Shown in pieces: positions 10,240 through 62,047 of a stretch of 64,000 bases of DNA (position 1 is its first letter; every line of letters begins with the position of its first letter). The translations under genes were made by a program, and so were the position numbers. The stretch lies in contig BCGN01000007.1 of assembly GCA_001599295.1 (NCBI GenBank), forward strand, positions 632,433 to 696,432, in the 5' to 3' direction. The DNA is from Sporopachydermia quercuum. Its lineage: Eukaryota > Ascomycota > Sporopachydermiomycetes > Sporopachydermiales > Sporopachydermiaceae. The notes under the pieces are model-generated. The model worked only from the letters and a program-made list of their open reading frames with translations. It did not search any database and was not told the origin of the DNA.

Positions 10240-12899
10240 GGAACTTGCCAGGAACTTGCCAGATGGGATAAAATCAAATTGAATTCAAACCAGAATGACT
10301 TAGTATCTTTATTCTCTTTTGAATGATAAAGAATGTGTGTATTAAAAACTTCATAGCTCATTATTATCATAAAAGGGGTGTACATATATATATATATATA
10401 TATTTGTGCATTATGTTGCATATCGTTCTGGAGTATTGTATTTTGCTATTTATAGTAATGAGAATTGAATTTTTAATGCTACGCTTAATGATTACCCTGA
10501 ATGTAAGTTTAATTCTTGCTCTTTTCCGGGGTTATTGAGTTCTCAACCTCGAGGAATGATGCATGAACATACGCAGAACAAAATAAAAAATAAAAAAAAA
10601 ATGTATAAAACAATACAGAAAATTGCGGGGTATTCTCGAGAGTCTTATTTCTATCGGCATTCCCTTTTTGATGAAATATTGATATGCCACCGGAATCTTG
10701 TTTTAACAAGAGTATGTCGTATTATCATATAATTAGTCTATGTAAAATATAAAGGTGACTCAAAATTCGGAAGCATGTACTAAGTTGGCGGGGCCTCAGA
10801 TTTCAGTACTAACAACAGTACTGCCTACCAATAATCACATTAGACTTCAACTCAAAAACATTATAAAAAGTTCTTTCGTTAGCATCAAAGATCCCAGGTG
10901 ATAGTAAGTAATTAGACAAGATAAACAGTCAATTACAATTTGTTCGTAATTATTATATAATCTGCTTTATCACGATGAACCAATAACTTATTGTTATTTG
11001 CAGGTATCTAATCTCGTAACCTTTGATTTAAATATCTTCTCTCAAGCTAGCTAGCTAGTATGGCACCTGCAACCAAGAAGAAATGCATAAGAGAGATCAA
11101 TATGATACTTTCAGAAGAAGAATTTTATCATCTCTGTCTTTGAAATTCAAAATTTTGAAGTGCAAATGAGAAGATCTAAGTATTTAGTTTGTATAATTTG
11201 GTTAATCAAATAGGATGTGAAGGGAAAGGTTGTAGTAAAGTGGTGAGTGACATCATTTATATTCACTGCCGGAAGATGTTCTACGCATTTTAGAATGGCA
11301 ATAAATTGGATTAGGTTACCCAATTCGAAGTAGTAGTAGTTTTGTAAAAGAATAACCTCTGCCGCGTAACTTAGTCAACCAACCTCAACGACATTATGGA
11401 AGCCTTTAGGAACATCTACAATCCACTACAGACTTTCATCGATGTTTCGGATTTTGTACGTCAATGCTTCCTAGGATTTAAAGTGCGTCAGTCGTGTTTC
11501 AGAAAAGTTCCATATCTCGAGGGATTCAATGTACTGGCAACTAATTCAAGTTCTGAGATGCAGGTATTTTCTATAGCTTATTGGCCAAAGTTCTCTCACG
11601 AAATCACATTAATTAATGAGTGGTAGAAACCAATAGGAGTTTTAAAGAGAAGATTTACTTTCTTTACCAGTTATTGCCTTATTGAGTTTGTCGAGTGAGA
11701 TGTATTATTATTATTGCTTTCGAAAAAAAGATTCATACATAGTAATAATAATAGACGAGACAATCATAGGAATCGATAGCATTATATAAAAAAATATTAC
11801 AAGTAAAATAAGAAGGAAGGAAACAAACAGCAAGTAGAACCACCTGAACGAAGAGGGCATGAAAAACATAGATGAGATTTTTATTCTTGAGGAATATCAT
11901 CAACCAAGTTCATCAAACCGGTATCACGATGAGAATATGACTGACCGTTAGAAGAACATTTCTGGATGGTTTAGAATTGTTTAATGATGAATTTAGATTA
12001 GAAGTCTAGACTCAGAAGCCAAACAACTAAAGATAGAAAAAAATTGGATCAAAAATGTAATAAAGAGGCCAAGGAGTGAAAACGGCGCCCTTCGAATACT
12101 TTAAGGAACNAGATTAGAAAGAAAGAGAAATGATTTACTGGTGAGTGAAATACACCTTAGTGCAAAATATACTTTGTCCTCTAAAGTGTTCAACAAGCTC
12201 ATAATGGTAATCTCTTATAGTGATAATCTCTGGAGAGTACATAGAATAATTTAAGGCGATTAAAATGAAGTTCCACAAATTTAGGAAGGAACAGAAACGT
12301 TCACCCTTTGTTGGAGAAACAAACAAAAAACAACAAAATTATTGCTACTCAAGCAAAATTAGAACAAGCAGATAACAAAAGGAAACATAATTAATGCCAT
12401 GTTATCTCTCCATCTCTTGTGCTAACCCCGATAATTTCCTACTACCTATCAGTAAGTAATTCTCCCAGAATACCTTTATCCAATGTTCAACCTTGTTATT
12501 TGTACTATTCAAACTTTGACAACGGTAGGAATGGTGGATAATGAGACGATAAAGGAGTGATAATTACTTGGACATGGTTATATTTGCCCCATCTTGAGAG
12601 CTAAGCTACTATATCGATCAAAACAAAATCTTCTTTGATCAATTATTCTTTGGTCTGGTTTATTAGATTCAGATAATAATTCATTATTCTTTATAATGAA
12701 TTATATAATCTGTTATAATATAATACAATAAAACTTATGTATGGTAAGGTAAAATTGCAAATTCATACTGATAATAGATAGATAAGCTATATAATAATAT
12801 AAATACAATAACACTCTTTCTCAGAGAAAAGAAGCGTTACAAATAGACAACAAAGAAGCGATGATTGAAAGAATTAACAACTCTGAGTTGGGCTGATCA
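10240..12899. other. Left part of the gene desert, no supported gene
   Basis: No open frame of convincing coding character was found. Just after the ATG9 stop there is an 11-bp unit repeated in tandem (GGAACTTGCCA twice, 10241-10262) and a TA microsatellite (10384-10403). A short frame at 11060 starts MAPATKKK, reminiscent of the N-terminus of Rps25, but it does not continue as Rps25. Frames near 11396-11626 (+) and 12326-12135 (-) are short and unrecognised. Part of this stretch could be 5' sequence of the copia fossil that follows, but I could not delimit an LTR by eye. Confidence 0.4.
10384..10403. repeat. (AT)10 microsatellite
   Basis: Twenty bases of perfect alternating AT lie downstream of ATG9. 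It is likely to be polymorphic in length. Confidence 0.9.
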
Positions 12900-15200
12900 T
12901 TAGTACTTTCACAGCTCAGGTACTAATTGAAGGTGTTGCAAGTGTTTATGATTTAGATAGTTGCTATGTAGGTCGTATATGTAGGAGTAATAAGAACTAT
13001 GATTCTGTTGGGGGTGCGCGAAGGGGACACTGCTGAAGCAATATCCAATCCAACTGTAAGACATGCTTTTTGGCGAAAACAGTGAATANTACAATGAGAA
13101 GAATAGTAAGACTGCCATTGAAAGGCCATTGGAACAGTAAAATAGATCTCAGATATCCAATCTATTCAATCATCAATTGGGGAGGATTATCGTTTATGAT
13201 TTATACGCTTGTTTTGGATATGCAGAGTCTACCTGTATCCCCATAGTGTATCAGTTGAAGTATTTCGTTTCTAATTGAGAAAAAAGTCGAATCAAAAACT
13301 AGCTGAGGTAAAATGCTGGTTGGAAAACTGAATGCAAGAATTTTGAGATGAGAAAGTATGTATAATCCAAAGGGATATCACTCCAGGTTTCAATCTGTTA
13401 TTGATCGACGCTATATAAAAATTAAATCGTACTATCCAGGAAAAAGCTTACTTACTGTTTGAGTATGGACTTCCAACATAAATCTGGAGCAATTTTTTTT
13501 GAAGCAAGCGACTTTTTTTCTATAGAATCACAACACACTTAGTAAAACTAATTATCAAGTGTGACCACCAATGAAAATATCATCAATATAGAAACAAGTA
13601 TTCATAATGTTGAAGTCTTTGGTTCTTCGGTCTGTGCAGCAAAGTCTTAAAAGTGAGAAGATCCAATNATAAGGCAGATGCAATAGTCACCTAGAATCAT
13701 CTTCATTTCTACCTTAAATGTTAGGTTGGTATTCATATAGCACACAAGGAACATTTAGATTCCATAAATAATAAGTCCTGGAGCCGGGGGTTTCAGCTAT
13801 TCGGTCAATACCATGCCTAATAATAAGAGCATGTTTCAGAATTACGAACAGTGTATACTCGGAATACTCTTTTTTCCTATTTCAAATTCCACAAATTCTA
13901 CGACAACTGTAGTTAGTATCTACAGTACCAAGGAACAATCAACTATTAATGGAACTAATGACACTGGAACTCAGAACCCAACAGAGATAAAAAGAAAAAC
14001 TTCACTTCTACGAACGGAGAACCAAGAGAGGGACTTGAGGGAGGAGCAAAATCCAGGATAAGTCTGTGGAATGAGTGGGCGAACTAACAAATTCTAGAAT
14101 GTCAACTTGAATTCAATTAAATGAGATAATAAGTCTGAAAGTCTTCAAAAGAAAATAAATGAATATGGTAATTTGTTAAAACAGGCCAAACGTTGAACAT
14201 AAATAAAGATTCCCAGGCAAATGAAGTGCAACGAAATCAAAACTACTATGATTATACGAAACATAGAATGATTGCAACAAGATCAGGCAAGATAAAGAAA
14301 GCAAAAACCTTTATCCTCCATAAAAATGGAAATCCGGTTGACTCATATGAATGAAAATACTGATAAATAATTCCAACTTTCATTCAGGATTGGAGATTTC
14401 ATTCTTGATAAAAAGAAATAACTCTTAAAGTCCAAACTTATTCGGATAGTATTGCATTATAGTTAATGCTTGATACTTCTCAGCTACATACAATACAATT
14501 AGATGAATTCTGAAAAATATTCAAGCTCGCAGAAAAAAGAAATGAAAAGATGCATGTCAAAGAANCTAGAATCGATGACAAGATATGACATGACANCTTT
14601 TGATTGTTGGATTAATAAGAAAGTGGTAAGCTTGATATATACCAGGAAGCCTGAAATAACCGACTAAACATTGGCCAGCAAACTAAAAAGCTAAATTAGC
14701 ACAGTGAGTCGCTTTGAACAGAAGACAAGAATCGGTATTTACATCAACGGCAAAAACAGAAATGAAAGATTACACTACCGTTAGCGGCTACCCTAGGGGA
14801 ATTCTTCAATCGGATCTACATTTCATCTGCTTTACTGTGGTGTTGTTAACAAGCAGACATATTTCCGACGTCCACTAGTTACCTCCCAGCACTTTTGTTG
14901 CATCAAAATCTGAATCATATCGGAATTTTACAGGGATCACTATATCGATTGAAACAAATCCTAAGTTCCGAAATGAGATTATTGATGGCTTCTTTAAAGA
15001 TGGATTTTAAGAATTGATTGATTGGCTAATCATAGATTGCGCTGCGCTGTAAGGAGATCTCAAGAAGGTGAACTGCTACTGTTGTTGGCTATGCTATATT
15101 TACGTTGACGATAATGCTGTTAAGAATCCAACCACATAACAAAGTAGGCTGGTATAAATTATTGGTCTAGGATCTTTGGTCCCTTGAACACCAGAGTGAC
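12900..15200 (+). mobile_element. Decayed Ty1/copia retrotransposon pol fossil
   Basis: Translations of the + strand keep scattered landmarks of a Ty1/copia-type pol in the expected order and spacing. Near 13.05 kb is an integrase zinc-finger-like C-x2-C-x3-K block (NCKTCFLAKT). Near 13.8-14.06 kb a polar Ser/Thr/Asn-rich stretch suits the integrase-RT linker. Near 14.93-15.12 kb is a reverse-transcriptase region with SLYRLKQ, NEIIDGFFKDGF and the catalytic-type IYVDD. Copia elements keep integrase about 2 kb upstream of the RT catalytic box, as here. The element is old and dead, with many breaks. LTRs, primer-binding site and target duplications were not found, so the outer limits are approximate. 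It sits within a few kb of a tRNA gene, a common neighbourhood for this superfamily. Confidence 0.6.
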
Positions 15201-15269
15201 CAACAAGGAAAAAAGTGTTTGAAAGAGCGTAGGCCCATTCATTTTGACTCTGCTCTNCTCAATTACCGT

Positions 15270-18200
15270 TGAATACTTTTAACTATTATACACAGTGTGT
15301 TTTAAGTTATATTTACTGATATTACTGACAATACTGAACCACATCAACAGCTTGACCATAAGCATATTGAGAATCAGGTGTCTTCTCGGTACCTGGAATG
15401 GGATTTGTAGGCTTATTCTCGAAGACTTGAAATAGAGAACACCGTCTTTCAGTGACAGCATATTCTTTGAAGTGCTTATGACCAATTTGTAGTTAAACAT
15501 AGTACTTTATCGTAGTTGTAGCAATCATCAATTACAAGTGGGTACTTGTAACTGCTGAAAACAATCTTCAGGCGGTTACCTATTCCATCCACTAATGCTC
15601 AATGAGAACAATTTGTAGACTGACTATATATTTGTAAGCACCAGCAAGTTGTTTGCCCAATTTATAAGAGTTACATACATGGTTGCTGTAAACCTAGAAT
15701 CTCATTATAACTAATCGATGTATTGATCAGATCAATATTCAAAAAGCCAAGTATTTTATAATTAGTTAACGCATTTTTATCTGTAGATCGAGAACCATAA
15801 ACATACCCAGTTATAGGATTGCCGGCCGTCACTAGGAAGACCAAGTCGTGTTCTAGATTCATCTTCGTTTCATTTCATTATTTTTAATATATGTGTGACT
15901 GAAGACTTGTTCGTATCTTTAATATATATGTATGTAGACCAAGTCTGCNACGATCAGTGTACAATACAATGCATGCTCTAGAGAATCCTACGTACTAATT
16001 GCAGTTCTGGTACAACTTACACTATTATTTCTCAGTCTGATCTTCACAGATCCCTTGACTTGCCTTTCAGTGCACCACTTGATTCCATTACTATTGACCA
16101 ACTTGTCATTCGAATAGAGCATATTAAATAATTTAGTATCAGATCAAAGGGAAATTTGAACTCCATTATTAAATTTTTGTACAAATAATAAACTAAGCAG
16201 AAATAGATTTATTCATGGGCTTATAGAATCTATTTATACAAACTGCTTCTGCAGAGACAATTTGTTCTTTTTAATTTCAATAATTTCAACATTAAGAATT
16301 GTCTCAAATCTAGTGGCCGATTGAGATTTCCAACCAACATAACTAGACTTCAACTTCAAATTACCAAAGATAATTTTAGTAGTAACGGAATTCAAATACA
16401 GAGTAGAGTAAAGAACTGAAGAGCTTCCTTCGCAGTCTTGATAAATTACTCAACAGATGTTCCTTCTGAAGGACATTCATGACCTTACCCAGGTGCTTTA
16501 ACTCTGAAAGCCTAGTACGAGAGAAAAGAACAATTGACAACAAGAACAGATAATTCTTCAAGCCTCTTGATAAGGATTAGTTGTAAGCTATTGCAACTCT
16601 TTAATAATACCATGACAGTCAGAAACAGTAGCAGATTGAAGGGTACTTACTGAATCCTAAGAAGCTTTTATTAGAAACCAAAGCTATATTGACGCAATTC
16701 CCTTTTCTGCGTTTAGGCTGGTTATTTGACCAATCTCCCATTTCGTCGCATATTCATCATTTCTAAGGTTTTCAGAACCTCNTTTACCACCAATTTTAAC
16801 AGACAGAGCAATTATAGTATCATAATTCGTGGTTTGCAAGTTAGCAACACGCATTTCAGATTCCCTTATTTAGATAAAGAAATAGCCAGTTTGATGTAAG
16901 CAGTGCTTTCACTCTTAATAATCGCATATGCTTGAACAACGAGTAATCAAATTCAGATTAAATACATCCAGCCATTTTGATGGCATTCTTGGAACACAGT
17001 TGAGATTCTCTGTCCGAAAACTTATCGAAGCCCTCATTTTCGTCAAAATTCACATTATTACGGAATGGACATAAAGCTTTGAGCTCTAGTCTTGTCGAAT
17101 AAATCTCAATATCATGGAAAGTCTCGCAAGCACAGTATCTATGTATCTATGTAACGAAAGTCTGGGAACAGGTGGTAACGAAATATCTTCAAGCGATAAA
17201 ATCAGGTACTCTCCAGTTAAGAGAGTATTCCTTCCTAATGTATTTTTAGATTAATTTCCTGGAGAACCAAACCAAGCTATTAGAGCAGAAATAGATATTA
17301 GGAGTTGCCTTCCAACGGTTCAATCTTTTTGACAACTAGTACTTCCCAATTGAGAGGGGGGATCTGGTTTTCCAGGAGCCGTAGGGCTTATAAGCCTGTC
17401 GATCGGATCGGATCTTTAACAACTCTATCGGTTATTGGCAGGAGTGCCGACAAAGATTATTCTTTAAAAGGTATGATAGGAGACATAATGATCTTGTTGT
17501 AATCTCAAATGGTTCAGGTAGCTTCTTGTTGTGAGTAATATTTATTCAACTCAGACGGCGGAACACCGACCTCATAGACCAGACTGTATATTCCGATTGT
17601 NGTTGAAATAGTACTCACACGGACTTATTCAGTTGATCTATATAACTCAAACTTGAATGGAATACATCAAAAGAATGTACCAAAGTAAGAACCTCGTAGC
17701 TTCTTCCCAAACGGCACTGTTAATCCTGATGTCTCCTTCTCAAATTAAGTCCTACAATCGCTCGAAATGTACCATGATCCCAAAAATGTTCACAACACTG
17801 GAAATCTTACAACAGAGCTCTTCTCACGAAACACATGCTATTATATGTGATCTTAACAACATAATCCTGAATGATATGAGTAGAGGTTCTAATTGAATAC
17901 ATATCTAGGGGAATCACCCCACCACCTAGATAAAAATAGGTACACTTGATAAAATTAATCTAATCCAAACTCTCCCTCATCCAACTCTTGAATACCTGAT
18001 TCAACTCTGATGATCATAATAATTCATTGGTACTCAGTAATCTAACCAGAAACAGTGCCTTAATCAGTGTCACTCCTCCCTCTTTTCCAGCAAATACTAA
18101 TGAAGGACCTACAAGAATGTCGATAAAAAAATCAAAGTATTCCTCTTTATGTAAAATTCTAACTAATTTCTCTCTCGGCTCTGCTTTTACATTTAGTAAT

Positions 18201-18300
18201 TTGTTTTCAAACGAACTTTCAAAATTTATATTCAAATTATTTACTGAAACACTTACTTTGAATTTGGTGAAACAATAAACTAGTTTTAACTTTACTATTT
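15270..18300 (-). pseudogene. Unidentified decayed coding region, minus strand
   Basis: Between the copia RT fossil and the tRNA, the - strand shows a series of stop-poor stretches with protein-like composition, near 18.24-18.01, 17.8-17.55, 17.15-16.98, 16.86-16.7, 16.45-16.25 and 15.86-15.67 kb. The + strand does not show this. Sample words are NVKAEPREKLVRILHKEEYF, NFDENEGFDKFSDRESQLC and YATKWEIGQITSLNAEKG. The 15.67-15.86 kb piece (KNALTNYKILGFLNIDL, then SISY) faintly recalls the end of a copia RT, so a second, oppositely oriented element is possible. The other pieces match no family I recognise. It is broken many times and clearly not functional. Confidence 0.4.
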
Positions 18301-19461
18301 AGCACAGTCCCTCAACAGTTCACCTCCATTTCCGCTTCTACATCAATCAATTCTACTTTCCTCCCATTCGTAATCCCTTGACTCTTTTAAGTCTAAATTA
18401 ATCTACAATTATTTCTCCCTATATAAACTTGGGTCATCCCATTTTGAAGTCGTTTCGTTCTCCAACATACATATAAATTTGTTCATATAATCAGTAGCCA
18501 TTTTTCCTCTCCATACAATTTAAGTTCTCTGTGCATTCTGTGAAAGCACTAATTCTTTGTCGTCTACCACCATTTAGGTAGGACCATACGGGGGAAAGTC
18601 TAATAAACTAGTTCTGATGGAAGAATCCTAAGAGGGTTTTTGGTGTGATTCAAACTATACAAGCGAGACTGAGCCCACCTTCTCATATATGATTATGCTA
18701 CAAGTGTTGGATGTATGTCATTAAGTGATAAGACAACTCTTATATTGCATCAAGTAGTGAGTGATACACATTCACGAATCAATAGTCAGAGAATAATCCC
18801 TAACGTATCGCAAAGCTAATGTTGCGACAATTTTCCTCGCTTATATGTTTGAACATATCTTATTGTGACGAATATTATCTGGACATATCCTTAAATTCTT
18901 ATAAAATATCTTGATCTTTTGATCTTTATATTTTCATAGTATATATCATGTAGAGTAGTTATTATATAATAAACAATTTCTTAAGAAATTGAACATAATT
19001 ATAAGTATTATTTCATTTATTCCAAGTTCAGTCAGTAGTGGAGGGGAAACATTCGTCAAGTCAGTCTTGTCCCTTAGCCCATAAGCATCCCACCAGACAA
19101 ACAGTGACCGGACAAGCAACCTGACAAGTGCATGAAAAACAATTAGAAGCATCATTGAGTGCAGAGGCACCTTCGTCTCTGTAACAACCAGCTATGCATT
19201 ACTTATTACTAAACCACGTGACCTTTCACGTGACACATTGGCATTTCACATCTATTTATATTTCTATTTGTACCTTTTATATATATATACTAATTTCTTC
19301 GCTGATTATTTACTCTCATTCTTCTCTTTCTAATTAATAAGAAAAGGAAGGAGAAGAAGGAAAAAGAGTAAGAATTCTAATACAATTCTTCAATTTTTCT
19401 TAAAATTCATTTTATTTTACTGAATGATGTATGATCAGACAGTAACACATCTCTCCAGCTG
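18301..19461. other. Right part of the desert, upstream of tRNA-Arg
   Basis: No coding region is supported. It contains a pair of CACGTG boxes (19215-19232) and AT-rich sequence, with a short TA run about 180 bp upstream of the tRNA. Position next to a tRNA makes this a candidate for retroelement scars, but I found no clear paired LTR ends. Confidence 0.4.
19215..19232. promoter_or_regulatory. Pair of CACGTG E-boxes
   Basis: Two CACGTG palindromes, at 19215-19220 and 19227-19232, have starts spaced 12 bp apart, close to one helical turn. The second lies within TTTCACGTGAC, the form bound by Cbf1-type bHLH factors. No protein gene begins nearby. The sites could belong to a former promoter or LTR in the desert. 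Confidence 0.4.
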
Positions 19462-19562
19462 TTCCTCGTGGCCCAATGGCAAGGCGTTCGCCTACGATTT
19501 CTTCTTGAACGTTAACTATATAGTCACAGCGAAAGATTCCAGGTTCGATCCCTGGCGGGGAA
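19462..19562 (+). tRNA. tRNA-Arg(ACG) with a 30-nt intron
   Basis: The acceptor stem TTCCTCG pairs with CGGGGAA (one T-G pair). The D arm contains GCCCAATGGCAAGGC. The anticodon stem TTCGC (19487-19491) pairs with GCGAA (19529-19533). The loop reads C-T-ACG-A then the intron (19498-19527) and A. The T arm is CCAGG-TTCGATC-CCTGG. Apart from the intron and anticodon stem the sequence closely resembles S. cerevisiae tRNA-Arg(ACG), which has no intron. The intron follows position 37, the canonical place for cleavage by the SEN endonuclease. A34 would be deaminated to inosine to read CGU, CGC and CGA. Confidence 0.96.
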
Positions 19563-19578
19563 GTGTTATTTCTTTCTC

Positions 19579-19584
19579 TTTTTT
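19579..19584 (+). terminator. RNA polymerase III T-run terminator
   Basis: Six consecutive T residues lie 17 bases past the tRNA 3' end, preceded by a T-rich stretch. This fits pol III termination for the tRNA-Arg gene. Confidence 0.8.
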
Positions 19585-19911
19585 ATTACATCATTAAACA
19601 TATTTGTTGGAACCCATTTCATTTTTTTATTTACTACGAAGGCCTCTCAATATGATAAGATGGTATTTAAATGGAAAGAGACATATTCAATTTTCTTACA
19701 TCCTTTTGAAAATCATTGATTAGTTAGAAATAATTGTTAACATGGTACTGATAGTATAAAAGTTGATCCATATGTTCGTGTTTGTGTGCATGGAGGACTA
19801 GCCGTCTGTGACTGCAATATTAGTTCCGTGTTATAGAGCTCTTTCTGTTCTTTTTATATCTATTGCTATCCTATGTGATTTAGGTCTATTGCACATAATA
19901 TTTTGTATTGC
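19585..19911. other. Gap between tRNA-Arg and the POL4 stop
   Basis: AT-rich with no gene seen. A TGTTGGAAC at about 19612 recalls the start of Ty1-type LTRs, but no matching end or second copy was found. Confidence 0.4.
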
Positions 19912-21501
19912 TTAGCTATTGCGTTCTTCAGGCGTTTTATAGTCGAGTTTAAGAATTTGAAATATTCTACGCTCGCTTTCGCTCTCAACGAGTTGTAAGT
20001 TTACCGGTGTATGGTTTTTTGGACTATCAGCATCTAAATATCGAAAAAGCCCCTTATTGTTGAGATGATATCCTTTTTTGTGGGCCTCTAAACGCATTTG
20101 CCGATTGAATATGTCATCACCTGTGAAATATATGAACGCGGCACCACGCTCTTCCCATGGTACCAATAGAAAATCAATCCGCCTACACTTATTAGATTCA
20201 GGTAGGGATGCACCACCACTCCATTTACTACTCTCGTGGAAAAAGGTTGTCAAAGAACATTTGATATAATTCTTACTCTTCAGATTTTTCAACAGTTCAG
20301 ACAAAAACAATTGTAGGTATGGCAGATCTTCGTTCTCTTTGGTGAATATGAAATCTACGTCTCCACAGTCAGATTTTCCTCTTCTATAACTACCCATTAG
20401 ATAGCATTTCACAGAACTATCAACTTCTTTAGCGACTCTCTCCACGAATTTAAAATGGGTTTCAACTTCGGTTCTTGACATTCGTTCGTTCCAATCATCA
20501 TAATATTTAATGCCATATTTTTGTACTTCTGTTAAATCTTCCTTCTTGCATAAGTCATCTAAGGATCTATAACCCTCTCTGTACCATGCCTGTGCTGTTG
20601 CATTCCCAACGCCATAGATTTTCTCAAAAATGTCAATTACTTCTAGCCTGTCATCAGATTGAGCTATCTTCAAAACTTTCGAATCATTAGTTTTGACTAC
20701 TTCTTCTAGTTTTGCTGCTAAACTTTCACCCATCCCCTTCAAGGAAGCAGCTTCTTTAGCACTTGCTATCATTTTCTGTTCCTTTTTTAGCGACGATATC
20801 GCTCTCCTATATGCAAGGGCCTTCCACTTTTCACCTCTATTTTCTTCATATTTCATCATCGACGTAAATACATCAATTACTCTTTGATTAGGTGATCTTA
20901 CCTCTTTGTCTCCTTTAATATTAGAAGTCTGTTCTGAATCAATATGACGCCTATTCTTATTCGTTGTCTCTATTTCTTCTTGTGTGATAGATTGATCCGT
21001 GTTTAATTTCCTTTTTTTCTCGTTGGTTAATTCTTGGGGATCATCTGAGTCTATTTCTATCACTGAATCTCGTTTCGGCTCCGCAAGCTTATTGTTATCC
21101 AAACCCTTATCATTGAATTCTATATCGTATAGATAGTTGTCTATTGTTATTGCTGACTGAAGTTTCATAGTTTCAATAGCCCATTCGACTCTGGTCACTC
21201 TTATTTCGTTCGTTTCAATGCTTCTTGTCAGCTTCTCCATATTCTTTGCAGTTAAGCATATCTTCTGTATATAATCTGACACCGCTTTGGTGCTCTTCAG
21301 CTTTGGGGTTTGATCATCCAAAACAAGTATGTGAGTTACTTGCATTGTTAATCTTTCAGCCACCTTAGCTCCCGCATTGGTGAGTACTTTTTGTCGAAAT
21401 TTGTAAGAAGGAGCATTCGATTTTGGTATTAAAACTAGTAGGCTTTATGTTAGTAAAAGTTATACGGAGACAATATAGTTACAAACTTACAGAAGCAACA
21501 T
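19912..21501 (-). CDS. POL4: DNA polymerase IV (family X), two exons with an 11-nt first exon
   Basis: Pol4 fills gaps in non-homologous end joining and base excision repair. The large exon spans 21442-19912. Extending it upstream restores a BRCT start (PSYKFRQKVLTNAGAKV then VTHILVLDD) to an acceptor AAG (21445-21443) preceded by TACTAAC. An 11-nt exon 1 (21501-21491, ATGTTGCTTCT) followed by GTAAGT restores frame, giving 513 aa; the intron is 21443-21490 (48 nt). Domains are an N-terminal BRCT (to about 110), helix-hairpin-helix motifs (LKGMGESLAAKLEEV and IYGVGNATAQAWY), and the polymerase core GSYRRGKSDCGDVDF with Asp365 and Asp367, then RRIDFLLVPW with Asp427. FTGDDIFNRQMR matches the family X FTGS..FNR motif. 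All three catalytic aspartates are present. S. cerevisiae Pol4 has 582 aa. The main exon is certain and the tiny first exon is likely. Confidence 0.9.
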
Positions 21502-53209: not shown

Positions 53210-56200
53210 ATGCCTAAACAGCTCCCGAAGTTCAGCTGCTTGGTTGGCTCCTCTATGGTATTCCAAGTTCGCAATCTTACCTTGGCAACTTTCCAACATC
53301 CTAAACATCCAAGAATGTTCCTAATTGCCCCGTGTAATGTCAGAAAACATCTTTACTGCACATACTAACCCCACCAGACACTTTAGACTTATCCCGCATA
53401 CCCCACAATTACCAAGATCTCACTTTCACGAACATCCCAACTTCGGAAAGATGCAAAATTGCCGAAACTTTATTCAAGCTCGGCCTAGTAAATACGTCAA
53501 TAAGAGAATATTTGATAGCAATAAAGCTCGCCCCGCCTTTGACTAAAATAGATGCTTTGGCCCAATTAGGTATAGTTTTCCAGAAAAGGAACGATTTTCT
53601 GAAAGCGGCATTTTGTTTCTACCACGCCAAACGGTTAAATTTCCTATTACGGCAACAAGATCCCGAAACTGGCTCGGGAAATAAAGTAAAGTCTCAGCGG
53701 ACTAAAGAGGGACGAGTTTTAGAATGGATGTACAACCGATCGGTAGCTAAAGTTTGGGATTCTCGGAACAAAAACCAAACTGAAGCGCAAATAGAACAAA
53801 TGTATCCTCACGTAGACTCTCCCTCAGAACGATCAAAATACCCCGCTTACCACGCCAACCTTGCAAAAGCTNCGCCCTGTTTCCCGATCCACGTGACCAC
53901 TTGTTTCAACGCATTAGCCAAAATTCAGCTTCTTTTAATGAACAATTTCTTCATTGGCAGGGGGGAAGATCCAGGAAACGGAATAACTCGGAATCATGAA
54001 ACTGAAAACGGAAATAATACCGGAAACATTAAGTCTATCAGCAATAACTGCAAAAACAGCAACAAAAGTTACAATGATTCAACTCTCCGAACATTAATTC
54101 AAACAACGATGGAAGAAATGTCGTACAAATTAACCAATGTAAATGACAAGCTTACAAAAAGTATGACAAAAATTGTCGTAGAGGTACCTGAAGCACCGAA
54201 TTGGTCTATTTTTACTGGAAATGGTTATTTACTCAGTGGCCATAATGATTGTAACAACGANCAAAATGAGAATAATTGCAATAACTTTAAGAATAATACC
54301 ACATTAAATGCTGTTGACAAAACTTGTTATGATGACTGCAATAATTCTTACATGAAGAGAGTTTCTGCTAGTTATAAGCTTTGTTTTAGCGGGATTTCCA
54401 AGTCACATGAGCCGCAGGANCCACAGGAGTCATCGTCGCTCAATTTGGATGCCCTTATAACTGCTATTGTGGACCAAGACGTTCCCAAGTATCACGAACG
54501 AGCNATTTGTTATTGGACAAACGAAATAGGGGAAAGAGGGGCCAACTTAACAAATAGAAAAGAAATGAGGGGTAATGAAGAAAATGTGACGCAGGAGGAT
54601 TTCCATGTTGCTAGTAACGGCAATTGTGATTATAATACTGGTTTTGCAAGTATTTCTAACCCCAAATCTACTCGGCATGTGCANGTGAGTGTGCTACAAC
54701 GAAACCCCATTTGCCTCTCCAAGGAATCTCAATCCGGAACAACAACCGAATCCGAAATCCCCAAAATCTATCCTTTACTGTTAACGGAAATAGTTACCGA
54801 ACTGCAAACACTTAATAACCCCGCATTTTGCTACTTAATTGAAACCCCAGTCAATGTATGGACGATTTTAAGCAGTCAGACGGAATCAAACTTGGTAACT
54901 TTAGATGGCGAATTAAAGTTAACCGAAGAATGTCAAACTACTATTAAGCATAACATTGTGCTCGGATATTTTGCCTATTTAGGAGGGAATTTTAGGTTAG
55001 CACTGCAAAGATTTCTATGGCTAATCGAATTTATTAGTCTAAGTGGGGCTAAGGAGAAGGGCAGCAAGAGTGTTGATGGTTGCAGCAACACGAGTAGCAG
55101 CATGATCTGTAATAATAACTCCCTTGAAGAAACTATTACTATTACTGCAAATGAAGCAAATAACTATATTAATTCAACCAGGAACTTGAACGCTGGCAAA
55201 AATATTAAGAATGACAATAACTGCTGTATCTCTGTCTCCTGCAAAAATATAGTTAAAGCTGGAGAAGAAGCAATCAGCAAAGCAGATAGTATTAATGCTA
55301 GGAACAATAATCCACAAGAGAACAATATTCAATCGAAAAGTAAAAACATTAATTGGATTGATCGGGTACTTAATGCAAAAGCACATATTCCCGAAATTGA
55401 TGCTATAGAAAAGAATATGCATGAACGTGACGATGCTTTGATTGATTGCAAAAAATACAATAATTATAATGACAATCACGATTATATTGACAAAAACTCG
55501 ACAAACATTACTGAACAACTTAACGAACTAAATAATTTTACGTTTGATAAGAAAATCATTTCAACAAATCTTCTATGTACGATTTTCTCATTATTAGCTA
55601 AAACATTATTAGCCCTAAATATGGAAACTTCATTTGAAGTACAACAAGATTCAAATGAATCAATTAATTGCAATGAAAATGCTGGATTTAATGTTGAGAG
55701 TGATAGTTTCTGCAATAATTTATGCAATGTTGAAATAGAAAACCACAATATAAACAGCGGTAAAGGCAAGAAAGATGGTACCAATAACTACAGATATAGA
55801 ATTAATGTTGATAATGCTAATATTGTTGGGGCAGNAATTAGCAATAACTGCTCTAATTATATTAATGATGACACAAATCATACTAACTGTAACAATAATG
55901 TTCTTAATTCTCTAAAAACAATTGAGAAATTGAATTATTGTAGTAACAATAACAATGATTGCAGCATTTCTCCTCCTAATAACAACAAAAGCATTAAACA
56001 AAAATACAAAAACGCTGACAAAAATAACAACTACAATACCCACTGCAATGCAGTTAGTGCCAACAAATCTGTTACTTCAAGCACCAACAATTACAGCATT
56101 TCTGATTTCAACGACATAAATTATACTAATTACATTAATTATAATAAACGCGATTATGGCAAACTTAATTGTGCTGACTCTGAAAGAAATACAAAACCCA

Positions 56201-57801
56201 CAAAAGCAATGATTGCGGCAGGAAATTCAATCAGAAAACAAAACTGTTTTAATTCTCACCGATTAAGTAGAAAAAGCAAAAAAAGCAATAGAAATGCTGC
56301 TAGAAAGGAACAGANATTGGAGCCAAATGGGGAGATTTTTACTGGGATTTGCAATAGCAATTATTATTTGAATCGGCCTGCAATTATTCTTAGTGACAAT
56401 AATCACAGCAACAAGGATAACAATAATAACACTTATCGCAATAAACACCCTAATAATAACTCTGCCAACAGTAATTATCAAACACTAGTTAATGCAACAG
56501 AAACAATTGCTGATAAAAACCATAATTTTAGTACAATTACTAACAAAAACTATGGCCAAAATACCCAAAATAATTACGACGACTACAAAAATTCAATTTC
56601 TAGTGCAAAAACAAATGTGCAAATACCAAAATTTGCGTCATTTTTTACTTGCCAATCTGAATTTATGAACAATGGGGATTTTGAAGGAGAGAACACAGGA
56701 GAATATGACGGAGAAAAGAGCGGAGATAATAAAGTGGGCACAAATACCCTAAACGGTAATACCGCACTATCGTATTTCCCAATTGAGAAAGCAATTTTAA
56801 CTGTTACAAACTTGATNAGTGAGGGGCAGGTTGAGAAAACTCACAGAACTGATGAGTTACTTAAAAGCTTTATAGCTTTGAAGAATCTATTGCTTGTAGA
56901 TTGTTTTGCTGTAGGTAGAAGCTGTGAGCTTGAGGTGCAAAAGGAGGTAACAGAAGAAATGTCGAAAAACTTGCCGCGAGCAATATCGGAAACAACTGCG
57001 GAAGATATCATACATAATAAAGAAACCGGAGACTTAACTACAAATACCCCACTTTTGTTTCTATGCCGCAACACTCTATACCAATTGATCCGCAAAACCA
57101 TTCTTATTATGGCATTAAAGCCGGAAGATGACCCCACTATTATTTCCGATTTAGAACTCATACTATGGGGTTTATTAATGCATGGCGGGATTTATATCAA
57201 GGTTTTCTACGGTTTTATTAGCATTTGGAAATACTTCCGAATACGTGGGGGATTCTACCCCGCAGTTTATGCCGATTATAGCCGAAACGGCAATAATACC
57301 GAAGTATTTGAGATCACAACCACAAAATTGTACTCTAGAGAAGATTTACTTTACTATATAGAAAGAATATCGGAGAAGATGTCGGAATCGAATGACGATT
57401 CTGGTAACAATCTACCTGAATTTACAAGAGATATTATATCCGAAGGGTGTCACTCGTCCTTGTTATTACCCCAAGTAATGCTAAACCGGAAATCAACACG
57501 GCTTTTAATGCTAGATAGATATTATAGCAAAGCGGAGATCATATCAGCAAGGGAAAAGCGAGGGAATTACTTAATCAGGAAATTCTCCGAAGGTGAACTT
57601 GGCTTGATTTCCCCATTGGGATTACAATGCGGGAAGGCCGAGGTTCATTCAATGATTACGCTATCAACTGATTTACTTCAATGTTGGATTTATAGTTATA
57701 CCCATTATCACAATAAGGTTCCGGAGCCATTGCTATCGTGTTTGAAATTAAGTTCAGAATTAGGATTAGGTTCGGGCTCGGGAACTAAAAGAGGGTATTA
57801 A
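53210..57801 (+). CDS. Very large Asn-rich protein with TPR-like N-terminus, possibly Est1/Smg7-like
   Basis: The frame running to 57801 has no ATG near its TPR-like start. Upstream it stays open to a TACTAAC (53363-53369) and CAG (53377). A first exon at 53210-53333 (MPKQLPKFSCLVGSS), ended by a weak GTAATG donor, restores frame through a 44-nt intron, giving about 1515 aa; this 5' model is tentative. The N-terminal block REYLIAIKLAPP, then ALAQLGIVFQKRNDFLKAAF and YHAKRLN, resembles the 14-3-3/TPR segment of Est1, Ebs1 and Smg7 (Y..A..L.P, QLGi, D.L.A.Y.Y), proteins of telomerase recruitment and mRNA decay. Long Asn-rich stretches (about 54.0-54.3 and 55.0-56.6 kb) split the protein. The C-terminal third is helical and normal in composition (LILWGLLMHGGIYIKVFYGF). 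The family assignment is weak. Confidence 0.6.
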
Positions 57802-58166: not shown

Positions 58167-61100
58167 CTAACTTATCATTCTCAACCTTAAATGCTTACCT
58201 CGCTCATTCAAGGCTTTACTCAAATTCTTCTCACAAGGCCAAATACACAATTCCCGAACTAGCCGCTCAAAGACGCCGAGAATTTCAACTGCGGCTTCAT
58301 CTTGCCCGAATGGGGCGGACAAACCTAAAATGAGTCCCGTTCCCCCCAAAATTGCGTCAACCTTATTGAGGATCTTACTAATGCGGATGCATAAAGCTGC
58401 ATCGTCACCAGTAGTTTTAGAGCGGCGAACAAATTCGGAGATAACTAAGCCACAATCAAATAAGGTTAAAATTACATGCAAAAATGTAATTCGGGAGGCC
58501 CGCGCCACTGAGCCACCTCGTGCATGTTTTTCCCATAAGGAGACGGCGTCTGCGGCGTAGGAAGCAGCTTCATGCAAGCCATGCAGCAGTTGGGCTTCAT
58601 CCTTTTGCCGTTTGAGAGAATTCTCGGGCGGTGTAACAAATAGGGTTTCAGCGGGAACTGATTGTGGTTCAAATATCCACGTGGTGATGCGGTCAAGAGC
58701 TCGGTTCATGGAGGGATAATCTCGAGTCCATACGTACTCTTTAGTCTTAGTTAGGTCAATGAATAGGCGGATATGGCCTAAAGAGGAAAGTGGGATTGCG
58801 TCAGACATGAGCGGGGCCCCTTCGCCATTGGGAGATAAGGTTGCCGAGGGGTTGAGGGACCACAGGGCTTCCCAGGAATCTAAATCGGACAAAAGCGTAT
58901 TGAAGTGAGGGTCCGAGAACCATTCAGAAGCGGAGATGATGATGTTTGTATTCAATTGGCGGGATTTCGAGTTTGATACGGGGTGATTTTGGTTATTGTG
59001 GTTATTTCCAGGGCCGGAAGCGGAACCATTTCCGGAACCATTGCCTGAATTGAAATTAGTGTTTTGGTCTCTTCCACCGAGAACCTTTATCCCGCTTCCT
59101 CCGCTTTCCCCTTTTGCTGATAAATACTGTTTTTGGTTGAATTTCTTCCGTTCGTAGTAAATATGTTGGTGCAATGCGTACATAAGCGAGGTAAGTGTGA
59201 ATGGTGCAATTGAACCTTCCGGGGTTTGAGGGGTAACTCCTCCGGGGCCGCTATGTTCGTCTAGCACCATTCGCAAAAGCGCTTTGAACGCAAAACCCCG
59301 GAAAACCTTATTGTCCATCTCTGTATCGTTTAAATTGCCCATTTGAGTGACATTACCCCACCAGTTTTCCCAATTAGGCGCCCGCCACAGAATCTCTTCC
59401 GTGGCGGAGCCACATTCGACTAATCCGGAAACTAATGCCGGCGGAATGTTATAAAACGTGCTTAATATACATGAAATTATATGCACTGCATGTAAAGTTC
59501 GGATCCGGGACTGACATTCCACAAAATACAGCCATTTCTGACGCGGAGTAATGGATCTTAAACCCCCATTGAGCCCCGCGTTGTCAACTTTAAAATACTG
59601 TCCCATTTCCGGAGGTGCAGCATGGATACCGGCCGATTTAGATAGCGACACTAACGCTATGCTCTGCCGAACGGCTATCCCCGCAGTTAACGGATCATCC
59701 GAGAATAACCCATACATTACACTTAAAGCCAAACATTGTACCAGCCAAAGCGGGGTAATCTCATCTTTCACTCCCGAAATACACTTCCAGTTCTTCCGCC
59801 CCTCCAAATATACGTGGATGCATCTTCGAGATGCTTCGAAAAGAGCCGAGGCAACGGGAAGTTCAAAGAGGTATAAAGCACCGAGGCAACGGGAAGTTCA
59901 AAGAGGTATAAAGCACCGATAGTGGCCATTTGTAGGGCAAGCGGAGCATTTTCGGAAGTGATAATTAAGGTTGGGATGTGGACAAAAGGCATATGTTTTC
60001 CGAAATTTGAAATATAAGCTTCTAGGTATCTGTGGAGGTCCGATTCNGCAGGAATATCCGGAACTGAAGAGGAGGAGAAAGCGGGGTAGGATTTGAGGGT
60101 GTTTAGCACGTGAGAGCGGACTTCGGAGGAGAAGTGGGGTAACTGGGGAATGAAATGAGAGATCTGATGAGCCTTAGGACCGGTTCTGCCAGAATTAGGA
60201 AACAAACTTGCCTCATTTGCTTCGATTTGGGTGGAATTAGGCGAAATTGACGTTGCCGAGGTCGTGGCAGAAGTTACCGAGAAGAAATCACTACTGACAG
60301 TCGCAGGGGCGGGGGTGGGGCCAGTAGCACCAGTACTTGAGGCGGAAGGGACGAAACTGAGACCGGAGCCGGGGCCGAGATCGGAACCCGGGTCGAGACT
60401 CAACGTAGGGTTCCCTATATTGTGGCTCATGCTCCCCACCCTCCCCGCATTGTTAGAGGGGTCAATTTCATGTATAAACTGCTCGTCTAAATCCAAAACG
60501 CCGTAAATATCGCCGTAATTGTTGAAAAGCTGGGAATCAAAATTGAGCCCCGCGTTTCCTAAATCGTCGCTCAACATAGCGGGGTCAATGGTGTTTGTGT
60601 GACTTGAGTGAGGGGTATTCGATCCGTTGTTCATTGCGTCATTGTGCATTAACCCGAAGTCCCGAGCGGAAGCGGAATCCGAAGCAGAACCCGAAATTCC
60701 GGAAAGTAGGCCCGATCCGGCATTGCCCGTATGGTCTGGCGGAGTCGTCATTTCCTCATCAAGATTAACTTCTTCCAGCATCATTTCGAAATCGTCAAGG
60801 TTTTGTGGTAACATTTGCGGAGTAGAAAACATTACTTGAGCCGGGACTTTTGATAACGCCGCTCTGTCAATATCTTCTCCGTCTTTTTTGTTTGTGTAAG
60901 TAGAAGCGGAAGCGGCCGAGAAGGAGGCGGGACGGCTTCTTCTTCCGAGATTGCCAAGATTTGCATGAGGCGTTCCGAACGATTCAAATGAACTGAGAGA
61001 CCCAAAAGNATGGTTTGCGTTATTGGGGATAAGGTTATTACTATTTCCGGAGGTGGCAGAAGCGGCAGAAGCGGGACCAGGGAGACCATTGTGATTTCTG

Positions 61101-62047
61101 GGAGGAGCACCGGGGTTCACAAACCCAGAATAACCGAATCCTGCGATGGGCTGCGGGGTGATTAACCCCGAAGTGTAGATCAGCGGGGGAATCACAGGTA
61201 CTCCGTTTAAAGTTGGCGGCATTGTGCTCCGAGAGGACTCATAATGATGTGGTAGAAATCCCGAATTGTCCGTGTAAGGGATGTTTTCATCCAAAGTTGT
61301 ATTTGTATCATGTTGCACTAAATGTTTGTGGTCTAATAACGTTGAGTTAACGTCAGGAAACAGCGACGAAAAGAGTGCAGTGTGGGAGTTCGGATCCCCA
61401 CCGGAAGGGTTGGCATTGGAGGGGTTGGCGGGGTCGTTGGTGTTGTGTTCCGAAGAAAGCTCCGCGGTTCCGGGAATTCCGGGGTGTGATTTACTTGATG
61501 TGGCTGAGTCTGGTGTTGCTGTTTGTGCTGTGCCATTTGTATTTGTATTTGAACTTGTACCATTCGTCCCGTTTGTAACTCTGGCCCTTTTGCGCACTCT
61601 TCGTGACGCAAAAGGAAAATTCGCATGCAGTTTCTGTTCGTGGCGCAGCAAAAGATCCCGCCGAGCAAAACAGCGCTGACAAACCTCGCACTGGAACGGT
61701 TTTTCGTTTGTGTGGGACAATTCGTGGCGCTTCAGGTGCTCTAAACGGGCAAAAGCTCGGGTGCATGTGGCGCAAATGTGAGGTTTAGGTTTATCTGGTT
61801 TTGGGGTTGTGGCTGAGGCTGAGGCCGAGTTTGGGGTTTTTTCTGTGGCTGCTTGACTTAAAGGGGAGACTGAGTTCGGAGTGGTGGTGTTTCTGTTTGA
61901 AATATTGGAGGGGTTCGAAGGGTTGGAAGAAGATATTGGGAGCGGANCAGATGTATTTGTGGAGGATATTCCGCTTATTAGTGGGGTATTCACAGAGCTA
62001 GGAGTGGGAAAGTTTGAGGATTTGTCGGCTGGAGAGACTTCCGTCAT
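58167..62047 (-). CDS. ADR1: ADR1-like C2H2 transcription factor, frame broken by a 35-bp duplication
   Basis: Two overlapping frames (62047-59768 and 59807-58167) are one gene. The first starts [15 protein letters not shown] and has two zinc fingers: Cys92, Cys95, His108, His112 and Cys120, Cys123, His136, His141 ([39 protein letters not shown]), close to S. cerevisiae Adr1. [16 protein letters not shown] and [10 protein letters not shown] (about 367-395) match the Adr1 RRASFSAQSASSY/VKFSTPELVP block that holds regulatory Ser230. The fungal transcription factor domain spans the break. A perfect 35-bp tandem duplication (59846-59915) shifts the frame near residue 710. With a single copy the product is 1281 aa (Adr1 1323) and reads [17 protein letters not shown] without a gap. 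As written, translation ends at 59768, losing most of the regulatory domain. Adr1 activates ADH2, peroxisomal and beta-oxidation genes in glucose-poor medium. Confidence 0.88.
59846..59915. repeat. Perfect 35-bp tandem duplication inside the ADR1-like gene
   Basis: The unit at 59846-59880 (starting CCGAGGCAACGGG) is repeated without mismatch at 59881-59915, and the next four bases (CCGA) begin a third copy. Because 35 is not a multiple of three it shifts the reading frame. The absence of any difference between copies means it is either very recent or an assembly error. Confidence 0.97.

What the first reader, a model, noticed from the sequence alone, without database searches (positions are those of the whole stretch)
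59846..59915. Perfect 35-bp tandem duplication splits an ADR1-like regulator
Two ORFs on the same strand join seamlessly into one ADR1-like protein if one copy of the 35-bp unit is ignored; the joined junction reads as ordinary conserved helical sequence. A recent duplication could be a contingency-type on/off switch, since slippage back restores the frame, a null allele in a heterozygote, or a local misassembly. All three matter for calling this carbon-source regulator.
Basis: seen in the sequence. Interest (0 to 1): 0.75.

Follow-up and report, generated by a model that had tools for sequence, protein, structure and literature searches.

The report
Frame-breaking 35-bp duplication in fungal regulator
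A zinc-finger gene regulator, apparently from a fungus, carries an exact and probably recent 35-letter duplication that cuts the protein short; it looks like an ordinary spontaneous mutation, perhaps on only one of two chromosome copies, rather than a built-in genetic switch.

Summary
Bases 59846-59880 and 59881-59915 are identical, and the match runs on for 4 bases (CCGA). In 264 kb examined it is the only perfect tandem repeat of period 20 or more whose length would break a frame, and the only direct same-strand frame switch. The two ORFs align to abutting parts of one continuous protein in two intact relatives: a 990-aa metagenome protein and a 1325-aa open frame on contig C8 of the same genome. 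The two-copy form is therefore derived.

Best reading: a microhomology-type tandem duplication made a truncation allele that keeps both zinc fingers and loses the C-terminal domain. Ns in the assembly are placed like collapsed SNPs, so a heterozygous allele is plausible; without reads, zygosity and misassembly stay open. A dedicated on/off switch is not supported: two copies only, commonplace microhomology, and no such repeat in the paralog. The fingers are ADR1-like, but the C8 paralog is equally so; a carbon-source role is unproven. New member of a known kind; modest interest.

The parts
59846..59880 (-). copy of the 35-bp unit (lower coordinates; second in transcript order)
59881..59915 (-). 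copy of the 35-bp unit (higher coordinates; first in transcript order)
59916..59919 (.). CCGA: 4-bp extension of the repeat (microhomology at the duplication ends)
   Evidence: period-35 identity runs 39 bases; computed chance of a total extension of 4 or more about 2%
59768..62047 (-). ORF1, 759 aa: N-terminal part with two C2H2 fingers (about residues 88-142); about 722 native residues, then 37 out-of-frame residues and a stop
58167..59897 (-). downstream open frame, 576 aa (first ATG 59717, 516 aa): C-terminal part of the same protein, no internal stop
61598..61810 (-). ADR1-like two-finger DNA-binding part
60047..60047 (.). single N at a synonymous third codon position (GCN), the nearest ambiguous base to the duplication (128 bp)

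Best explanation
A recent spontaneous tandem duplication of 35 bp, made between two 4-bp CCGA microhomologies (replication slippage or microhomology-mediated repair), broke the frame of a two-finger C2H2 transcription factor. Shown: the exact repeat, its microhomology, the frame break in the assembled sequence, and that the two intact relatives found lack it. Inferred: the allele gives at most a protein of about 722 native residues with the fingers but without the conserved C-terminal part, possibly lowered by nonsense-mediated decay because about 1.6 kb of former coding sequence follows the stop. Inferred: the source is a diploid (or mixed) strain collapsed into one consensus, and the duplication may be one allele in it; a fixed two-unit form is the other possibility under this heading. 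The repeat could in principle collapse back, as other short direct repeats can, but nothing found marks the site as built for switching.
For: Identical copies with a 4-bp extension whose computed chance is about 2%. The only direct same-strand frame switch in a codon-usage scan of 264 kb; three same-strand gaps under 150 bp in the C8 block read, by eye, as introns with GTATGT or GTAAGT donors. The downstream frame has no internal stop in 576 codons, while the other five frames of the same stretch hold 12-38 stops, so no decay is seen after the lesion. Continuous homologs: P0001 (990 aa) and C8:640998-644300 in one 1325-aa frame. The 133 N bases in 264 kb (131 single, one pair) fall by codon position 9/10/31 (1/2/3; p 1e-4) and at 0.33/kb in coding against 0.75/kb in noncoding DNA (p 3e-6), as SNPs under selection would. 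The assembly holds one match to the locus, so a second allele, if any, was collapsed.
Against: No reads, so neither the second copy nor its zygosity is shown. Ns can have other causes, and the N test uses coding frames drawn by my own scan. Only two relatives cover the site; a search with ORF1 residues 625-725 found none at E <= 0.001 among 44 candidates, and the search with the downstream frame scored a capped list. No other isolate was compared and the organism was not identified. The repeat is unique in 264 kb, so there is no set of similar events here to support a mutational process.
Confidence: 0.68

Rival explanations
1. Local misassembly or consensus error: the genome has one unit and the second copy was added by the assembler, for example where two haplotypes or read ends were joined.
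For: The assembly holds unresolved Ns. An exact short tandem copy in an otherwise undamaged gene is also what a faulty join would look like, and a few shared bases could guide a wrong join.
Against: No other direct frame switch and no other frame-breaking perfect repeat of period 20 or more in 264 kb, so the assembly is not generally prone to this; one local error remains possible.
Confidence: 0.22
2. Contingency-type on/off switch: the repeat expands and collapses at a selected high rate to turn the regulator on and off.
For: Reversible microhomology tandem duplications with a premature stop are described for S. pombe ssp1 (PMC13207564, passages and figure legend, citing Dan et al. 2021, not held).
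Against: Two copies, no array. 504 pairs of microhomology of 4 bp or more at 10-100 bp spacing in 1,679 bp of the downstream part alone. No 4-mer repeated at distance 35 in the homologous stretch of the paralog (one paralog only).
Confidence: 0.05
3. The two-unit form is tolerated: splicing or a programmed +1 ribosomal shift gives a full-length protein.
For: Both frames are open together over 59768-59897. 17 GT..AG pairs (30-260 nt, donor within 200 nt upstream of the repeat or in it) would keep the frame open.
Against: Donors of those 17 (GTCCAC, GTGCTT, GTTGCC) differ from the GTATGT and GTAAGT donors of the three introns read here. None of the 17 holds a CTRAY motif, a weak point because by eye at least one of those three introns lacks it too. 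No CTT-AGG, CTT-AGT or GCG-AGT site in the ORF1 frame of the overlap (motifs recalled).
Confidence: 0.03
4. Two separate proteins are made from the two ORFs.
For: Both frames are long and have no internal stop.
Against: Both relatives that cover the site are single proteins across it. The downstream frame's first ATG is its codon 61, past residues that align to P0001.
Confidence: 0.02

Closest known systems
Microhomology-mediated tandem duplication (MTD), as described for S. pombe ssp1
   Same: Direct duplication of a short coding segment with microhomology at its ends and a premature stop; described as reversible (PMC13207564, passages and figure legend).
   Different: Here one assembled instance in another gene; no measured rate, no reversion, no selection shown.
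Truncation alleles of YGR067C in methanol-evolved S. cerevisiae
   Same: A factor with an ADR1-like DNA-binding domain losing its C-terminal part through premature stops, in three of three methanol-exposed lineages (PMC7643182, passages).
   Different: Two base substitutions and a 1-base deletion in a haploid lab strain under selection; here a 35-bp duplication with unknown phenotype.
ADR1 of S. cerevisiae
   Same: Two-finger DNA-binding part; 2adr_A matched in one stretch with 80.4 bits by the finger part.
   Different: Orthology not shown. The C8 paralog scores 75.2 bits to 2adr_A (a 1100-aa part of it) against 73.5 for ORF1.
Phase-variable (contingency) loci
   Same: A repeat whose copy number sets the reading frame.
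   Different: No multi-copy short-unit array; no sign that the repeat is kept in the paralog.

Membership tests
Microhomology-mediated tandem duplication | Exact head-to-tail duplication of a short segment | tested here: met
Microhomology-mediated tandem duplication | Microhomology of a few bp at the ends of the duplicated unit | tested here: met
   4 bp CCGA; computed chance about 2%
Microhomology-mediated tandem duplication | Derived from a single-copy ancestor | tested here: met
   P0001 and the C8 paralog, 2 of 2 relatives that cover the site, have no extra residues there; P0002 begins downstream of it
Microhomology-mediated tandem duplication | Reversion to one copy in growing cells | not testable with these tools
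   needs reads or colonies
Contingency (phase-variable) locus | Hypermutable multi-copy short repeat | tested here: not met
   2.1 copies of 35 bp, no array; mutation rate not testable
Contingency (phase-variable) locus | Repeat-prone site conserved in relatives | tested here: inconclusive
   no 4-mer repeated at distance 35 in the homologous stretch of one paralog; no orthologous DNA was at hand
ADR1 ortholog | ADR1-like two-finger DNA-binding part | tested here: met
   2adr_A matched at residues 90-142, 80.4 bits in one stretch with the finger part; several multi-finger chains have higher totals summed over many stretches, the best single stretch in the five alignments printed being 45.5 bits
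ADR1 ortholog | Best or only ADR1 match in its genome | tested here: inconclusive
   C8 paralog equal to 2adr_A; 20 matching stretches in the genome, itself included; the others were not compared with ADR1
ADR1 ortholog | Regulates carbon-source genes | not testable with these tools
   no expression data
Fungal_trans (PF04082) domain factor | Pfam PF04082 in the C-terminal part | tested here: inconclusive
   not detected in the window frame, the C8 paralog or P0001; present in the distant homolog P0002 (E 1.7e-8), which phmmer links to the window frame (E 4.8e-21)
Heterozygous allele | Two alleles in reads | not testable with these tools
   indirect only: placement of Ns

The most novel reading that the evidence does not exclude
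A reversible microhomology duplication toggles an ADR1-like regulator between a full-length form and a truncated but DNA-binding form, kept in the population because the short form pays off on some carbon sources, as truncations of YGR067C did on methanol in the laboratory.
Probability: 0.06. Interest if true: 0.55.

Novelty: new member of a known kind. Interest (0 to 1): 0.24.

Why it matters
For annotation: a gene caller would probably report two shorter genes where relatives have one regulator, and presence/absence studies may score the gene as lost. If the allele is real and heterozygous, it is a natural case of a tandem-duplication frameshift in a transcription factor, of a kind (ADR1-like fingers) in which truncation of one S. 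cerevisiae member improved growth on methanol. Otherwise it is routine mutational noise or an assembly slip.

Tried and rejected
A search with residues 625-725 of ORF1 found no homolog at E <= 0.001 among 44 candidates. A CAND1-like neighbour (name by my own reading) was used to try to place the organism; one weak hit without a name came back. That it is a fungus is inferred from P0002's source name (Bionectria), the gene content as I read it, and the introns. Splice rescue and +1 shift rescue were considered and held unlikely. Of ten CTG codons aligned to P0001, five face leucine (three of them in the finger region) and none faces serine, so the CTG-serine code is unlikely. The codon-usage scan was trained on 59 long ORFs of the same DNA with this locus left out. 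It looked at direct switches and at gaps under 150 bp only, so lesions across longer gaps would be missed. One script failed on a gapped record and was run again in mended form. Other paper searches: tandem duplications; Adr1; of their listings I read passages of PMC13207564, PMC7643182 and PMC2527678 and no paper as a whole.

Full report
What is there. The window lies in contig C7 of a 16.39-Mb, 12-contig assembly without a name. On the minus strand, ORF1 runs from 62047 to 59768 (759 aa), and a second frame is open from 59897 to 58167 (576 aa; first ATG at 59717). Where one frame gives way to the other lie two identical 35-bp units, 59846-59880 and 59881-59915. The match runs on for four bases, CCGA, to 59919, with no extension on the left. 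Thirty-five is not a multiple of three, so the second copy shifts the frame: ORF1 reads 37 foreign residues after about 722 native ones and stops (from the translation).

More than chance. An identical 35-mer next to itself is not expected by chance in 64 kb. In 264 kb (the window plus 200 kb of contig C8), a scan for perfect tandem repeats of period 8-600 listed two of period 20 or more: this one and a 36-bp x 3.1 array. Shorter perfect repeats with frame-breaking periods (8, 10, 11, 13) do occur there. A codon-usage Viterbi scan of the same 264 kb, trained on 59 ORFs with this locus left out, found one direct same-strand frame switch, at 59884/59885, inside the repeat. Three same-strand gaps under 150 bp in the C8 block have GTATGT or GTAAGT donors and AG acceptors by eye and read as introns.

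One gene, not two. Without joining the two frames, each was compared with intact relatives. P0001, a 990-aa protein from a JGI source, matches the fingers (76% over 74 aa), then ORF1 607-717 (P0001 413-516) and second-frame residues 5-95 (P0001 509-595), on to residue 987. A paralog on contig C8 of the same genome does the same in one 1325-aa open frame. In both, the two window pieces abut and overlap only in and next to the residues of the duplicated unit. So two of two relatives that cover the site lack the second copy. P0002, a 492-aa distant homolog that begins downstream of the site, has Pfam Fungal_trans (E 1.7e-8). That suggests what the lost part is, but Pfam does not detect that domain in the window frame, P0001 or the C8 paralog.

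Age and origin. The copies are identical, and the downstream frame has no internal stop in 576 codons while the other five frames hold 12 to 38 stops. The lesion is thus recent or an artefact. A four-base extension has a computed chance of about 2% if duplication ends were random, which fits slippage or microhomology-mediated duplication. Such pairs are common: 504 of at least 4 bp at 10-100 bp spacing in 1,679 bp of the same gene. The homologous stretch of the paralog has no 4-mer repeated at distance 35. Nothing found singles out this site.

Zygosity. The window has 43 single Ns and the C8 block 89 N runs, 88 of one base and one of two. Of these 133 N bases, 50 fall in coding segments with codon positions 9, 10 and 31 (first, second, third; p 1e-4), and the density is 0.33 per kb in coding against 0.75 per kb in noncoding DNA (p 3e-6). 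Heterozygous SNPs written as ambiguity codes would look like this. The locus is matched once in the assembly. A collapsed diploid in which the longer allele was kept is therefore plausible. This is inference: Ns can have other causes, and an indel leaves no such mark.

What the allele would do. The fingers match the solved ADR1 fingers (2adr_A, 80.4 bits in one stretch; several multi-finger chains have higher totals summed over many stretches). The truncated product would keep them and the long linker and lose the conserved C-terminal part. It need not be null. In S. cerevisiae, premature stops in YGR067C, described there as having an ADR1-like DNA-binding domain, arose in three of three methanol-exposed lineages, and one rebuilt stop gave the growth of its lineage. 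The authors suggest that genes normally repressed could be constantly expressed (PMC7643182, passages read). Nonsense-mediated decay could instead lower the product. Neither was tested here. In ADR1 itself the DNA-binding region is a target of glucose regulation (PMC2527678, abstract and passages). Whether this gene is the ADR1 ortholog is open: a 1100-aa part of the C8 paralog scores 75.2 bits to 2adr_A against 73.5 for ORF1.

Compared with what is known. Reversible microhomology tandem duplications with a premature stop are described for S. pombe ssp1 (PMC13207564, passages and a figure legend read). The primary paper, Dan et al. 2021, is not held, and I know it only from recall and the review's reference. 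The present case meets the structural features of that class; reversibility was not testable. It does not have the multi-copy repeat of a contingency locus.

Verdict. The most likely account is an ordinary recent tandem-duplication allele, possibly heterozygous, with misassembly as the main rival. Read mapping would settle it.

Noticed in passing
window 10240-19461: 9.2-kb stretch with no open frame of 100 codons or more (longest 97 in the scan of 10240-19912), GC about 34%, no clear repeat array, ending at a tRNA-like match 19462-19563 + that Rfam finds (44.9 bits; its length suggests an intron) but ARAGORN does not: perhaps a regional centromere or a noncoding transcript.
   Followed up: partly
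window, 43 sites, e.g. 60047, 61009, 61947: Single-base Ns; with those of the C8 block they favour third codon positions and noncoding DNA, as collapsed heterozygous SNPs would, and are more clumped than Poisson (variance/mean about 2).
   Followed up: yes
window 53728-57801 +: 1357-aa asparagine-rich open frame without a Pfam match at E 0.001, holding 8 of the window's 43 Ns.
   Followed up: no
L018:854-4831 (C8:640854-644831): Intact paralog of the broken regulator, fingers 84% identical over 61 aa, one 1325-aa open frame.
   Followed up: yes
C8:582740-582852 (L012): Perfect 36-bp x 3.1 minisatellite with a unit divisible by three; whether it lies in a gene was not looked at.
   Followed up: no
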